Shown: piece after piece, positions 10,893 to 47,012 of the stretch
How positions within the stretch are numbered: the stretch's first letter is position 1
How the letters are laid out: every line of letters starts with the position of its first letter
Source of the DNA: a virus
Virus record (IMG/VR): IMGVR_UViG_3300046530_000369
Span: 1 to 47,449 of that record
Strand: one strand, 5' to 3'
DNA: 47,449 nt
The notes under the pieces: generated by a model
What the model saw: the letters and a program-made list of their open reading frames with translations, nothing else
Database searches by the model: none
Told to the model about the DNA's origin: nothing
Position numbers and translations under genes: made by a program

Positions 10893-11621
10893 CTACCAGC
10901 TATGGGATGACCAGAAAACTTTCCCTATAACGCGCACGCTACGCTGAAATTCTTCGCGAGATACGATCTCATCGGGGTACTCAGGCCTATTGATTGACCG
11001 GATGATAAAGCTGTCTGGAAGCGCGATAAGCGTTTTCACCCTCAGTAGGTCAGCCTGGCATATGGCGTAAGTCTTCCCGTCCCTAACCGTGGTCTCCTGC
11101 GTGTTAACGCCAACCACATCACCATCATTAAGCGTGGGCTCCATGCTTCTACCTGAGACACGAACCAATTTGGCCGCATCCTCAGGAACGCCCATCTTCC
11201 TTAGATAGTAACGCCGGAAGACCAACGCAAACTCTGAGGACTCTTCTACTTCACAACTTCCATCACCGGCAGCTAAAGAAACATTCAAAAGCGGTATCTC
11301 TACAAATTCATCCGTGTCTTGATGATCCATATCCTCCCAAACCGTGGCCTTCAGGCTGGTATCCCTGATATTGGATCCTTCCAACTTCACAGGGACTTGT
11401 CCCTCTGCGCGAATTGGTTCTTCCCCAGTGGATAACCACTCAGGGCGAACTCCGAGAACCTTGGAGATCTCGTATAGCTTCCGGGTGTTTTTAGTTACAC
11501 CAGAAGTCAGCTTCCAAACACTGGGCTGAGCCATCCCAATAGCATCAGCAAGTGATACCTGGTTGAACCCTGCCTCTTTCATTGCGGCATTAAGCCGGTC
11601 TGCAAATGTCATTTTTTCCAT
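10893..11621 (-). CDS. cI: CI prophage repressor, S24/LexA-type
   Basis: A 242-residue repressor: N-terminal HTH (about 5-60; NQVSLADAIGMAQPSVWKLT), linker, then a LexA/UmuD-like C-terminal domain. The self-cleavage apparatus is intact: Ala118-Gly119 cleavage site (LAAGD), Ser159 (SGRSM) and Lys196 (LRVKT), so RecA-stimulated induction is expected. It binds the operators on either side of the gene to shut pL and pR. The start is taken at 11621; an ATG three codons later is equally possible. Divergent from cro across OR. Confidence 0.93.
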   Translation of the reverse strand: MEKMTFADRLNAAMKEAGFNQVSLADAIGMAQPSVWKLTSGVTKNTRKLYEISKVLGVRPEWLSTGEEPIRAEGQVPVKLEGSNIRDTSLKATVWEDMDHQDTDEFVEIPLLNVSLAAGDGSCEVEESSEFALVFRRYYLRKMGVPEDAAKLVRVSGRSMEPTLNDGDVVGVNTQETTVRDGKTYAICQADLLRVKTLIALPDSFIIRSINRPEYPDEIVSREEFQRSVRVIGKVFWSSHSW

Positions 11622-43047: not shown

Positions 43048-44094
43048 TTATACTACAAGTTTGCGGATGTATTTTATTTTACGGAAAATTGAGTAATACA
43101 AAAGGCAGGATGCGTAAGTAGCTGTCGCCATAAAAGCAAGCTGAATAATTATACTACAATCATCAAAAAAAGGACTTACTAAAAGTAACTCAAGTGGGAT
43201 TAAATGAAACAGGTAGACGCAAAAACTTGACGCGCTCAGAAACTCTAATGGCATCAAAAAATTCGAAAGAGTCTTGTCATTAATCTTACTTAACAACAAG
43301 AATGCGAATGCACTTACCAAGAAAATACCTAAAGAGTTGTACCAAGTAAACCCCTCGCCATTAATCAGAGAGCCTTTTATTTTTAAATAAAACTGTATGC
43401 ATAACACAAAAATAACGGATAGAGCTAGACCTAATGATATACTTAATGAGTTGAGTTTTCTTGATATGAATCTGTCTGTAACCAAATATCCGAACACGAA
43501 ATAAGCCAGGTAAGTACCTAGAAACTCACCATTGACAGCCGTGTAAATAGGATAAGAGTTGATGATAATCTTCTGAGAGACAGGTATGAAATAGGCAATT
43601 AAACATAGTGACAGGTATATCGCTATTTCCTTGGTTGTTAAGTTCTGTAACATTCTCCCAACAAAAGGTGCAACTAAGTATAGACCTATTATGGTATACA
43701 TAAACCATAGCTGATAAGCATGAAATGTATTACCGCTTGCCAGTTGATGCATCAGCTCGCCAATATTCAAATCTCCGTGATGCAATCCTATGTAGGTTAA
43801 GTTTGTAGCGAAAAAGTACACCACCAATACTAAGACAAACTGCGGTATTCTTTTTTTATAGAATCCAAAAACTGTAATTTTACTAACGCCGGGCAGTATA
43901 AGTGACCCCGAAATCATGATGAATAATGGAACGCCGATTCTTCCGAATATTCTTATTACTTGATAAATTGACCAGTTGAAATTACTTAATGCAGCGTGTT
44001 TAATCATCAGTTGATCGGATGTGTGAAGGATAACGACAAAAGCCATAGCTAGAAACCGTGCAAGATCCATCCACGCAATTCTATTTTTAGTCAT
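43048..44094 (-). CDS. Acyltransferase 3 membrane protein (O-antigen acetylase-like)
   Basis: A 348-residue integral membrane acyltransferase of the Acyltransferase 3 family with about ten membrane helices. Family marks: WMDLARFLAMAFVVILHTSD with the conserved Asp, Arg and His24, then GRIGVPLFIMISGSLIL, and a late CVYLFHL. Such phage-borne enzymes usually O-acetylate lipopolysaccharide in lysogens and change phage receptors. Clearly more A+T-rich than the phage genes. Own transcription on the minus strand. Confidence 0.88.
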   Translation of the reverse strand: MTKNRIAWMDLARFLAMAFVVILHTSDQLMIKHAALSNFNWSIYQVIRIFGRIGVPLFIMISGSLILPGVSKITVFGFYKKRIPQFVLVLVVYFFATNLTYIGLHHGDLNIGELMHQLASGNTFHAYQLWFMYTIIGLYLVAPFVGRMLQNLTTKEIAIYLSLCLIAYFIPVSQKIIINSYPIYTAVNGEFLGTYLAYFVFGYLVTDRFISRKLNSLSISLGLALSVIFVLCIQFYLKIKGSLINGEGFTWYNSLGIFLVSAFAFLLLSKINDKTLSNFLMPLEFLSASSFCVYLFHLIPLELLLVSPFFDDCSIIIQLAFMATATYASCLLYYSIFRKIKYIRKLVV

Positions 44095-44296: not shown

Positions 44297-44558
44297 TGTT
44301 CCATACCTGCACTCAAAAAAATAAGTGATATAAGAATAGAGGCAAAGTTATCACTATTCCAGCTCTTTGTTTACATAACCCTTACAAAATCACATTATTA
44401 GGCTTCTCAAGCCAACACCTTGGGCAATAGATACTGATGGCACCCTTTCGATCATGTGCATTACCACTTCACTCCGGCTACAAGCTAAATCTTCCCGAGC
44501 ATCAACCATCTAACACTCCCATCTCAAAATCCCCTTGATAGCCTGCGCCGATCAATAC

Positions 44559-44578
44559 TACTGTATGTGCATACAGTA
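44559..44578. promoter_or_regulatory. LexA box upstream of the UmuD'-like unit
   Basis: TACTGTATGTGCATACAGTA is a full palindromic SOS box: CTGT-N8-ACAG with TA on both ends. It lies 20 bp before the ATG at 44598, so LexA would repress that two-gene unit until DNA damage. Confidence 0.88.
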
Positions 44579-44597
44579 TTTTGTGAAGGAGATTATC

Positions 44598-44840
44598 ATG
44601 GCACGCAGAGACGACATAGCAACAGCATTCAGAGCAAGCATCAGAATAGCGCCGAACGGCAAGCGCACGGTGACCACGGTCGACTTCGTTGAGCACCTGA
44701 CGAAGTTGAACCATGATTTCACTCTGGCTGAGGCTAACCGGTGGATTGAGCACTATCAGGGCAGCTTCCGCGACATCTCGACAGAAGAGGGTGAGCGCCG
44801 GACGTTCCATCTGTTCAATCCAAACAACGGAGGCCACTGA
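44598..44840 (+). CDS. SOS-controlled small phage protein
   Basis: An 80-residue basic protein (MARRDDIATAFRASIRIAPN) that reads as a helical DNA- or protein-binding domain (TTVDFVEHLTKLNHDFTLAE). AAGGAG is seven bases before the ATG. First gene after the LexA box, one base before the UmuD'-like gene. I do not recognise a characterised function. Confidence 0.75.
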   Translation: MARRDDIATAFRASIRIAPNGKRTVTTVDFVEHLTKLNHDFTLAEANRWIEHYQGSFRDISTEEGERRTFHLFNPNNGGH

Positions 44841-44841
44841 T

Positions 44842-45165
44842 ATGGGATTTCCATCACCGGCGCAGGACTACGTAGAATCGCGGATCGACCTGAACGAGAT
44901 AATGGTGGCCAGGCCGTCGGCAACAACCATCTATACCGATGGTGACACGCTGCATGTGATTGACAGGTCCATGCGGCCGAAGCCGGGAGAACCATTCTAT
45001 TACGAGCTGCTGGGTGAGTCAGGGCTGGGCAGGATGATGGGAGGCGCATTGGTGACGAGTGCCGGCGAAAGCATCGAGGGAGAGGTGCTGGATGAGCTTA
45101 ATGTTATCGGAAAGGTAACCTTCTGCGCCCGACGCGTTTACGAGGAGCGCCGGCCGACAATCTGA
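44842..45165 (+). CDS. UmuD'-like protein lacking the protease dyad
   Basis: A 107-residue protein whose first 27 residues (MGFPSPAQDYVESRIDLNEI, then ARPSAT) match UmuD beginning exactly at its Gly25, the residue exposed by self-cleavage. It therefore starts as a ready-made UmuD'. Beyond this the chain diverges: no SGDSM serine motif and no clear catalytic lysine, so it cannot cleave itself. By analogy with phage HumD it may act with UmuC or modulate SOS mutagenesis; that is inference. Confidence 0.75.
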   Translation: MGFPSPAQDYVESRIDLNEIMVARPSATTIYTDGDTLHVIDRSMRPKPGEPFYYELLGESGLGRMMGGALVTSAGESIEGEVLDELNVIGKVTFCARRVYEERRPTI

Positions 45166-45166
45166 T

Positions 45167-45255
45167 GTGTCGCACTGGAAGGTGTCAGGGTAGTGACGTC
45201 ACTGCGGTGTCATTGGAGTGTCACTGTTACGTCACTGCTTGCCATTCCGTCACTT
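45167..45255. repeat. Cluster of GTCACTG-type repeats next to att
   Basis: Copies related to (A/T)(C/G)GTCACTG occur at about 45196, 45219, 45229 and 45247, with weaker ones near 45167 and 45208, spaced roughly 10-18 bp. Short direct repeats beside a core are what integrase arm-type sites look like. No gene covers this stretch. Confidence 0.6.
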
Positions 45256-45307
45256 GTGAATGCAGATAAGGCCAGTGTTTACAGTCAGTTAATTAGACCT
45301 CGACGTT

Positions 45308-45352
45308 CTTCTAAGCCGTAGGTCACAGGTTCGAATCCTGTAGGGCGTACCA
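45308..45352 (+). other. att core: 3' part of tRNA-Arg(UCU)
   Basis: 45 bases that form the 3' part of a tRNA: anticodon loop CTTCTAA with anticodon TCT (45310-45312), variable loop, T arm ACAGG-TTCGAAT-CCTGT, acceptor strand AGGGCGT, discriminator A and encoded CCA. It closely follows E. coli argU. The bases before 45308 do not make a proper anticodon stem, so only the 3' piece is here, as expected at the far end of a prophage that used the gene as target. The intact copy should lie left of position 1. Confidence 0.88.
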
Positions 45353-45376
45353 TTATATTTCAATGAGTTGCAAGGC

Positions 45377-46063
45377 TCACCCTGACTTCAAATTTTCCTT
45401 GTGGGACAGATTTGGGACAGAGGCACTATAAATCGCATCAATATGACGTGCATGCTCGGTCAAATGGTTCGGTGCCAGATGAGCATAACGCTGTACCATC
45501 TCGATACTTTCCCAACCTCCCATTTCCTGCAATGCTGACAGTGGCACTCCTGCCTGAATAAGCCAGCTCGCCCACGTATGTCGCAAGTCGTGAAAACGGA
45601 AGTCCTCTATACCCGCCCGAACAAGTGCGGCTCTCCATGCAGTATTTGAATCAACCCGCATTTTCCTTTCCTGAGGAACCTTAATTACCGGCCCTTTTTC
45701 GATCCACTTCCAGTCACGCTCCGCCGCCCGCATCAATGCTTTCATTAAAGCCAGGTGCTTCGCCTTCGTTGAAGTTGAAACCGGCTCCGGTTTATAAACC
45801 CCCATATCGATTCCCTTCTTCTGCATCCCTGCAGCCCGCTGTTTCCAGCGCTCCTCAGACTTCCTATTATTCATCCTGCTTACAGCGGTGTAAATCTTCG
45901 CTTCGGTAATGTCCTTCAACAGAACACCCTCAAAGTGAATCAGCCAGAATCCCATCCGGCCTTTATCGGCATCCAGTGACTTTTTGTGTGCTTTCTCTTC
46001 AAGCCAGCGCATGCAGGCTTCGTCAAAAGTCACGCTGGGAAAATCACCGAGTTTCTCTATCCG
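45377..46063 (-). pseudogene. Remnant integrase of a second prophage
   Basis: Homologous to the integrase at 1-1164 but doubly damaged. The N-terminal half-domain is missing: homology begins at the [13 protein letters not shown] segment next to a stop near 46064. An in-frame deletion joins GPVIKVPQ to ERKMRVDSN, removing the equivalent of residues 178-288 including catalytic Arg215 and Lys242. HDLRH and the tyrosine (QRYAHL) remain. The frame is open for 218 codons from a GTG, so a product is possible but cannot be an active recombinase. Its stop lies 25 bp from the tRNA core. Confidence 0.88.
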
Positions 46064-46222
46064 CTACAGCTCAGCTTTTCTTTGGTCGTGCAATTCCATC
46101 CACACCTCACGGGCCAGAGTGCAGCGCGGTATGGTCCAGATTAAGCGGCGCTTTCCGGTCTGGCCTGCCCACTGGATAATCTCATCCATGTAGTGCTCAA
46201 AGGTTTTCTCTGCTTCAGTCAT
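46064..46222 (-). CDS. Remnant copy of the 65-residue early gene
   Basis: A 52-residue frame (MTEAEKTFEHYMDEIIQWAG) nearly identical to the gene at 2378-2575 until REVWM, where it switches to ELHDQRKAEL and stops. The stop abuts the truncated integrase, so this end is the deletion junction. Still coupled (ATGA) to the gene before it. Confidence 0.7.
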   Translation of the reverse strand: MTEAEKTFEHYMDEIIQWAGQTGKRRLIWTIPRCTLAREVWMELHDQRKAEL

Positions 46223-46446
46223 GTCACCCTCCGTTGTTTGCCTGCCCACTGATTAAGCTCATCATCTTTCCTGCACTCCGGGCAGCAGTAGCTCGCGCCC
46301 GGCTGAGATGGCTCCCCACAATTGCCATTGCGGCAAATGGGTGACGGCGGTTCCGCCTACTGCCTGTTAGCCAAAGCGATAGTCCTTTCCAGTTCTTCAA
46401 GCTCAGCGGGCTGGTCTGTTATGTCTGCATGCATGAGGTGGCTCCT
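46095..46446. repeat. Right copy of a 352-bp direct repeat
   Basis: Collinear with 2448-2799 at an offset of 43647 bp with scattered substitutions. With both copies in the same orientation, recombination between them would delete nearly the whole intact prophage and the att core. Confidence 0.85.
46219..46434 (-). pseudogene. TraR-like zinc-finger gene with premature stop
   Basis: Same length and layout as the intact gene at 2572-2787, but ANRKKPEPP has become ANRQ-stop-AEPP (TAG), cutting the product to about 25 residues before the zinc finger. The cysteines remain encoded after the stop. Confidence 0.85.
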
Positions 46447-46501: not shown

Positions 46502-46909
46502 TTACGGATTACGATATTGTTCATAGGTGCGTGGTTTGGGATCGGTGGCAGTACGATACTGTTCAATGCTTTCTTTGCGTTGCTTAAGGTACATCAATGT
46601 CTCATTGAGCTGATTTTGCTCATCAATAGGCATAGTGAAAACACCAGAATCATTCTTTGATTTAATCTTATCCATGATTTCAATGGCTAAACCAATCATC
46701 TCGCTATCGGTCAAAATCTCGTTTCGATACACTTCACAGCGGTTTTCGAGATCGTCAACTTTGCTTTCTAATTCCCCGACCTGATTGAAATAGCCTTCAA
46801 TCTGTGACTGCGCATCGCTCAGCGCTACGTCCGCATTAATAGCGAGCTCTTTCAATTCGTTGACTTTTTCAATTGCTTGACTAGCAAGTTGTTCAGCTGT
46901 ATCAGACAT
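46502..46909 (-). CDS. Coiled-coil protein with upstream LexA box
   Basis: A 135-residue acidic, fully helical protein (DTAEQLASQAIEKVNELKEL, IEGYFNQVGELESKVDDLEN) with no membrane segment; the coiled-coil pattern spans about residues 5-70. AAAGGAA is about seven bases before the ATG. It has its own terminator and a LexA box 83 bp upstream, so it may be an SOS-inducible gene kept intact in an otherwise decayed prophage. Function unknown. Confidence 0.78.
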   Translation of the reverse strand: MSDTAEQLASQAIEKVNELKELAINADVALSDAQSQIEGYFNQVGELESKVDDLENRCEVYRNEILTDSEMIGLAIEIMDKIKSKNDSGVFTMPIDEQNQLNETLMYLKQRKESIEQYRTATDPKPRTYEQYRNP

Positions 46910-46992: not shown

Positions 46993-47012
46993 TACTGTAT
47001 ATAAATACAGTA
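46993..47012. promoter_or_regulatory. LexA box in the prophage remnant
   Basis: TACTGTATATAAATACAGTA differs from the ideal SOS box by one central base. On the minus strand TTATGA, 17 bp, TATACA could form a promoter overlapping it, leading to the gene at 46502-46909. Confidence 0.88.

What the first reader, a model, noticed from the sequence alone, without database searches (positions are those of the whole stretch)
44559..45165. LexA-boxed unit encoding a pre-processed, protease-dead UmuD'-like protein
A near-ideal SOS box sits 20 bp before an uncharacterised 80-residue gene and a gene whose product starts exactly at the Gly exposed by UmuD self-cleavage, yet has lost the Ser/Lys dyad. The phage thus seems to make UmuD' directly on DNA damage, with a divergent C-terminal part and an unknown partner. 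It could redirect host UmuC, block it, or act in induction timing.
Basis: partly seen in the sequence, partly recalled or inferred. Interest (0 to 1): 0.68.

Follow-up and report, generated by a model that had tools for sequence, protein, structure and literature searches.

The report
Phage SOS operon encoding ready-cut UmuD'
A prophage carries a small two-gene unit, switched on by the host's DNA-damage alarm, that makes an already-activated and protease-dead version of the bacterial mutagenesis subunit UmuD'; it is a widespread, shortened cousin of phage P1's HumD rather than something wholly new.

Summary
A LexA box (44559-44578, 0 mismatches to TACTGTATN4ATACAGTA) lies 19 nt before an 80-aa gene (44598-44840). 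One nt after its stop, a 107-aa gene (44842-45165) starts Met-GFPSPAQDYVESRIDLN, the sequence exposed when UmuD cuts itself. The family profile matches UmuD' over its whole length (E 4e-13) and the AlphaFold model matches UmuD' crystal structures. The active-site loop with Ser60 is deleted and Lys97 is Gly; Ser60 and Lys97 are missing in all 134 distinct short-class relatives. All 115 distinct gene-1 upstreams carry a LexA box. dN/dS is 0.03-0.19. So it is a real, conserved SOS unit at the attR end of an integrated prophage.

It is not a new idea in biology. P1 HumD is a LexA-regulated, pre-processed, functional UmuD', and relatives are already annotated 'UmuD-like' (phrog_3469). The short class is a derived variant that fails the UmuD and HumD cut-offs. 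Most likely it supplies ready-made UmuD' to host UmuC during SOS. The pocket it lost is the one that, in a published Pol V model, holds UmuC's C-terminus, so it may act as the arm-donating subunit beside host UmuD'. Gene 1 (predicted winged helix) is an optional partner of either UmuD' class. Function is inferred, not shown.

The parts
44535..44540 (+). -35-like hexamer TTGATA, 18 nt before TACTGT (the -10 position, inside the LexA box)
   Evidence: sequence; a hexamer matching TTGACA in at least 4 of 6 bases lies 16-18 nt before the box in 123 of 148 distinct relatives against 13% in shuffles; the simple scan did not list it because the -10 is weak
44559..44578 (+). LexA (SOS) box TACTGTATGTGCATACAGTA overlapping the inferred -10
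44586..44591 (+). Shine-Dalgarno AAGGAG, 6 nt before gene 1
   Evidence: sequence
44598..44840 (+). gene 1: 80-aa protein, phrog_3893 (unknown function), predicted winged-helix topology H1-S1-H2-H3-S2-S3
   Evidence: phrog E 4e-30; AF2 pLDDT 83; weak winged-helix Foldseek neighbours such as Fur, FoxO, TubR, PadR; dN/dS 0.12
44828..44833 (+). Shine-Dalgarno CGGAGG inside the end of gene 1, 8 nt before gene 2 (coupled translation likely)
   Evidence: sequence
44842..45165 (+). gene 2: 107-aa short-class UmuD'-like protein without prodomain
   Evidence: phrog_3469 E 1.6e-23; profile vs UmuD PDB 8gmt E 4e-13; Foldseek vs UmuD' 1ay9 prob 1.00, TM 0.71
44842..44895 (+). codons 1-18: conserved UmuD' N-terminal arm MGFPSPAQDYVESRIDLN
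   Evidence: FPSPA in 134/134 distinct short-class relatives; arm dN/dS 0.04 in the Erwinia group
44938..44943 (+). site of the 11-residue deletion that removes the Ser60 loop (between Asp33 and Gly34 in this alignment)
   Evidence: alignment
45028..45030 (+). codon 63 (Gly) at the position of catalytic Lys97; next residue Arg64 = Lys98
   Evidence: G 80, A 51, V 3 of 134; none Lys
45139..45162 (+). last 8 codons: C-terminal tail YEERRPTI, absent from E. coli UmuD
   Evidence: P-x-[IVLMF] ending in 114/134 short-class and 13/20 HumD-like proteins
45172..45355 (+). phage attP/attR region with tRNA-Arg(UCU)-like 3' half; prophage end at about 45355
   Evidence: 98% identical to phage vB_EhrS_59 up to 45355, then diverges; the tRNA identity is my reading of the sequence

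Best explanation
This is a LexA-repressed prophage operon. On DNA damage LexA leaves the box that overlaps the promoter, and a small putative winged-helix protein and a UmuD' homologue are made together. Because the UmuD' homologue lacks the first 24 residues, it needs no RecA-stimulated self-cleavage and lacks the N-terminal ClpX recognition sequence of UmuD. It most likely joins host UmuC, since no UmuC lies beside the unit, and inserts its conserved N-terminal arm into UmuC as mature UmuD' does, giving early pol V-type translesion synthesis on damaged host and phage DNA. Because it has lost the pocket (Ser60, Thr95, Lys97) that holds UmuC's C-terminus in the published Pol V model, it probably works as the arm-donating subunit of a mixed dimer with host UmuD'. 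Shown here: sequence, regulation signature, fold prediction, selection, distribution. Inferred: UmuC as partner, sign of the effect, mixed dimer.
For: Arm FPSPA invariant in 134/134 short and 20/20 long-class proteins. Whole-length profile and fold match to UmuD'. LexA box in 115/115 gene-1 relatives, and at the head of the unit also where gene 1 is absent or replaced. Strong purifying selection. Gene 1 is followed by the short class or by the HumD class interchangeably: 64 vs 10 loci, at least 7 forced label changes on the gene-1 tree; this suggests the two classes do the same job, and HumD complements UmuD' (P1 record). All 12 host genomes tested that carry the short or HumD-like class encode UmuC. 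Arm insertion into UmuC: PMC11791011 and PMC12926913. ClpX recognition in the UmuD N-terminus: PMC5342242.
Against: No experiment. UmuC is common in these hosts anyway, so 12/12 is weak. The lost pocket could equally make the protein a blocker. The UmuC-tail pocket rests on a published model, not a solved structure.
Confidence: 0.5

Rival explanations
1. Blocker: the short UmuD' pairs with host UmuD/UmuD' or plugs UmuC with its arm and keeps pol V from being completed, so that the lysogen or the replicating phage suffers less mutagenesis or fork inhibition.
For: The pocket for UmuC's C-terminus in the Pol V model (UmuD' S36/T71/K73, read here as UmuD S60/T95/K97) is gone in the whole short class while the arm is kept, which is what a dominant-negative would look like.
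Against: It swaps freely with the HumD class in the same operon slot, and HumD supports mutagenesis (title of McLenigan 1999, cited in PMC4713147).
Confidence: 0.22
2. RecA modulator: the protein acts on the RecA filament (as UmuD' can inhibit recombination) to tune cleavage of the phage's own S24-type CI repressor or the recombination of phage DNA, so it sets induction timing.
For: The prophage has a CI-like S24 repressor (10893-11621) and RecT; UmuD binds RecA filaments (8gmt); arm changes alter inhibition of recombination (PMC5342242).
Against: The active-site region of cleavable substrates is the part that was lost; the arm conservation is better explained by UmuC.
Confidence: 0.15
3. Gene 1 is the business end: a winged-helix SOS-induced regulator of phage or host promoters, with UmuD' as a passenger.
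For: Winged-helix topology predicted; gene 1 always directly behind the LexA box; occurs without UmuD' in a few loci.
Against: UmuD' is the constant member: it occurs without gene 1 or with an unrelated small first gene. No significant fold match (best PDB E 0.07).
Confidence: 0.08
4. Decayed remnant with no function.
For: The protease site is lost.
Against: dN/dS 0.03-0.19 in both genes; intact in over 130 distinct relatives.
Confidence: 0.02

Closest known systems
Phage P1 HumD (NF051876)
   Same: LexA box about 20 nt upstream, starts Met-GFPSPA without prodomain, phage-borne, shares a C-terminal tail ending P-V-I; class mostly lacks the Ser/Lys dyad
   Different: 129 aa and keeps the Ser60-loop region and Lys97; no gene 1 in P1; window protein scores 35.7 against a cut-off of 120 and only over the arm
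E. coli UmuD/UmuD' (pol V subunit)
   Same: arm nearly identical, same fold, whole-length profile match
   Different: no prodomain, no self-cleavage site, Ser60 loop deleted, Lys97 to Gly, extra C-terminal tail, not next to umuC
PHROG 3469 'UmuD-like protein' with PHROG 3893
   Same: these are the families of gene 2 and gene 1 themselves
   Different: PHROGs states no mechanism for 3469 and no function for 3893
YqjX/YolD-type small subunits of PolY mutasomes (PMC12926913)
   Same: subunits that keep only the arm and change the body: the same design theme
   Different: not homologous in the body as far as tested here; Gram-positive systems; those are next to their polymerase
ImpC-ImpA-ImpB plasmid operon (my own knowledge, not tested)
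   Same: LexA box, small first gene, then a UmuD homologue
   Different: ImpC is DinI-like as I recall, while gene 1 has no Pfam match; no ImpB/UmuC here

Membership tests
UmuD (autoproteolytic pol V subunit, NF007621) | score above curated cut-off (110 bits) | tested here: not met
   39.5 bits, residues 2-31 only
UmuD (autoproteolytic pol V subunit, NF007621) | Ser60/Lys97 dyad and Cys24-Gly25 cleavage site | tested here: not met
   Ser60 loop deleted, Lys97 is Gly, protein starts at Gly25
UmuD (autoproteolytic pol V subunit, NF007621) | UmuD' fold | tested here: met
   Foldseek to 1ay9/1umu prob 1.00, TM about 0.7; profile E 4e-13
HumD (NF051876) | score above curated cut-off (120 bits) | tested here: not met
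   35.7 bits over residues 1-35
HumD-like (functional sense: LexA-controlled, prodomain-less UmuD') | LexA box directly upstream of the unit and start at Gly25 | tested here: met
HumD-like (functional sense: LexA-controlled, prodomain-less UmuD') | supports pol V mutagenesis in a umuD mutant | not testable with these tools
   needs a complementation assay
PHROG 3469 UmuD-like protein | full-length profile match | tested here: met
   E 1.6e-23, residues 1-105 of 107 against 1-104 of 106
PHROG 3893 (gene 1) | full-length profile match | tested here: met
   E 4.1e-30, residues 1-78 against 1-78 of 79
Peptidase_S24 (PF00717) | Pfam match at gathering score | tested here: not met
   no match for the window protein; 9 of 53 relatives match weakly, best E 0.016
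winged-helix DNA-binding protein (gene 1) | significant match to a winged-helix fold or family | tested here: inconclusive
   topology fits but best PDB match E 0.07, no Pfam family

The most novel reading that the evidence does not exclude
Phages have evolved a separate class of UmuD' that has lost not only self-cleavage but the whole pocket for UmuC's tail. It therefore builds a deliberately asymmetric pol V (one phage arm-donor plus one host UmuD') or a recruited variant of it. A phage-specific C-terminal tail, resembling the acidic tip of SSB in some members (EFDDCPVM), might add a new contact, and a winged-helix helper is made from the same SOS operon.
Probability: 0.15. Interest if true: 0.65.

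Novelty: new variant of a known kind. Interest (0 to 1): 0.42.

Why it matters
Temperate phages of enterobacteria, including E. coli and Klebsiella, widely carry this unit, so lysogens may have a pol V whose activation step (UmuD cleavage) is bypassed and set by the prophage. That could change damage-induced mutation rates of the host. The short class is also a natural experiment on which parts of UmuD' are needed: the arm is frozen while the active-site pocket is gone. It can test the recent model in which one UmuD' inserts its arm into UmuC and the other holds UmuC's tail.

Tried and rejected
Upstream start (150-aa ORF from 44713): rejected, because it overlaps gene 1 and in 31 of 74 relatives no upstream start could add 12 or more residues. 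Decay/pseudogene: rejected by dN/dS. Gene 1 as a DinI/ImpC-type protein: no Pfam match. Gene 1 as anti-phage defence: no PADLOC match. UmuC encoded next to the unit: no UmuC-like ORF beside it in the window. UmuC remnants next to the unit in L072, L092 and L165 are fragments; L116 is an ordinary chromosomal umuDC picked up by the arm pattern. I first read the record as a permuted free phage; the attP comparison showed an integrated prophage instead. The tRNA search found nothing, as expected if only the 3' half of the tRNA is present. The text of McLenigan 1999 is not held. E. coli whole-genome search with the pair from phage Flotzy: 16 of 5,426 genomes over at least 80% of its length, partial matches in 174. 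The first translation of gene 1 was off by one base and was corrected.

Full report
WHAT IS THERE. The window is an IMG/VR virus record. Position 1 is the integrase end, and the sequence after gene 2 is 98% identical to the attP region of Erwinia phage vB_EhrS_59 up to 45355, where it departs into other DNA. So the record is an integrated prophage plus about 2 kb of flank, and the finding lies in the last gene unit before attR. Order: -35-like TTGATA (44535), LexA box (44559-44578) covering the -10 position, gene 1 (44598-44840), gene 2 (44842-45165), attR with the 3' half of a tRNA-Arg-like gene.

REGULATION. The box has no mismatch to TACTGTATN4ATACAGTA (0.12 matches expected in the whole window at three mismatches). 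Among relatives, 115 of 115 distinct sequences upstream of gene 1 carry a LexA box with both CTG/CAG cores intact, almost all 12-23 bp before the start. In 123 of 148 distinct units a -35-like hexamer sits 16-18 nt before the box, against 13% in shuffles. Where gene 1 is missing, the box mostly lies 10-22 bp before UmuD' itself (19 bp before P1 humD, L096); where another small gene takes its place, the box lies before that gene. This comparative pattern makes LexA control very likely, although no expression was measured.

GENE 2. Single-sequence search finds UmuD' only through the arm, but a profile of 53 relatives aligns to UmuD over residues 25-136 at E 4e-13. The AF2 model (pLDDT 84) has UmuD' crystal structures as its best matches (prob 1.00, TM about 0.7). 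The alignment shows why Pfam S24 fails: an 11-residue deletion removes the Ser60 loop, and Lys97 is Gly (80), Ala (51) or Val (3) in 134 distinct short-class proteins, never Lys. By contrast FPSPA is invariant in all of them. In the HumD-like class (20 distinct sequences, which include one chromosomal UmuD from a Burkholderiales MAG, L116) the loop is present, but the serine and lysine are mostly lost as well. 'Pre-processed and protease-dead' is thus common among phage UmuD' proteins, and the window protein belongs to the more extreme class. Selection is purifying: dN/dS 0.03-0.05 against the closest relatives, arm 0.04 and core 0.19 in the Erwinia group; in the Pantoea group arm and core are equal at 0.15. 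Caveat: the relatives fetched with gene 2 were seeded by the peptide MGFPSPAQ (one search used it alone, among six peptides), and the sorting script also required a PSP motif; the gene-1-seeded set is free of the seeding bias and shows nearly the same N-termini, with a few variants.

GENE 1. phrog_3893, unknown function, no Pfam family. The model (pLDDT 83) has the order H-S-H-H-S-S of a winged helix and weak neighbours that include many winged-helix proteins, so DNA binding is a guess. Seeding with gene 1 alone, 64 loci have a short UmuD' next, 10 a HumD-like one, 3 none and 3 are cut. On the gene-1 tree the label HumD needs at least 7 changes on starred branches (few columns, so read with care). 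Gene 1 therefore stays while the UmuD' type is exchanged, which argues that both types do the same job.

DISTRIBUTION. 87 phage records match gene 2, 36 gene 1, 893 plasmid records at low identity (this count probably includes HumD and UmuD kin). In bacterial genomes almost all hits are Enterobacterales. All 12 host genomes tested carry UmuC, often several matches. In the annotated phages the unit sits between tail genes and the integrase in most cases.

MECHANISM. In the published Pol V model (PMC11791011; summary in PMC12926913) one UmuD' inserts its arm between Palm and Little finger of UmuC, and armless UmuD' is inactive. The other UmuD' holds the UmuC C-terminus; K422 contacts UmuD' S36, T71, K73 and E69. 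If that numbering counts from Gly25, as UmuD' numbering does, these are UmuD S60, T95, K97 and E93, i.e. the old active site. The short class keeps the arm and lacks S60, T95 and K97. Hence the proposal: the phage protein can be the arm-donor but not the tail-holder, and would work in a mixed dimer with host UmuD', or as a blocker if the mixed complex is dead. That HumD is functional (P1 record; title of McLenigan 1999) and swaps with the short class tips the balance to 'helper' (0.5) over 'blocker' (0.22).

VERDICT. Observation confirmed; interpretation partly supported; the class is known by annotation and has a tested cousin (HumD). What I could not find described: the complete loss of the active-site/UmuC-tail pocket in a large class, the interchangeable operon slot, the optional winged-helix partner, and a shared C-terminal tail. 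The literature check covers only the open-access library searched here.

Noticed in passing
window 45139-45162; L096 (P1 humD) and relatives: Phage UmuD' proteins of both classes end in a tail absent from E. coli UmuD: P-x-[IVLMF]-COOH in 114/134 short and 13/20 HumD-like, often EFDDCPVM/I in the HumD class. From memory this resembles the SSB acidic tip (DFDDDIPF).
   Followed up: partly
window 46993-47012: A second near-perfect LexA box (TACTGTATATAAATACAGTA, 19/20) in the flank beyond attR, 83 nt before a 135-aa ORF (46502-46909, minus) without Pfam match.
   Followed up: partly
window 45377-46249 (minus): Beyond attR lies a second, broken integrase (74% and 41% identical pieces to the prophage's own, with an internal deletion and an in-frame stop), as if an older element used the same site.
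   Followed up: partly
L165:2951-4094: Here gene 1 behind its LexA box is followed directly by a deleted umuC instead of UmuD', as if gene 1 had recombined into a umuDC operon.
   Followed up: partly
L092:3276-3425: The short UmuD' stop is followed at once by the last 32 or so codons of a umuC gene; either a relic of a umuD'C operon or a recombination junction.
   Followed up: no
L079-L091: About a dozen short-UmuD' units have a different, unrelated small first gene behind the LexA box.
   Followed up: no
L003:8013-8321 (phage vB_EhrS_59): The closest named phage also encodes an SRAP/YedK-type SOS protein in its early region; PMC12926913 links SRAP proteins to UmuC-like polymerases.
   Followed up: no
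window 43048-44094 (minus): An acyltransferase (PF01757), perhaps for surface-polysaccharide modification, is a second likely lysogenic-conversion gene next to the unit.
   Followed up: no
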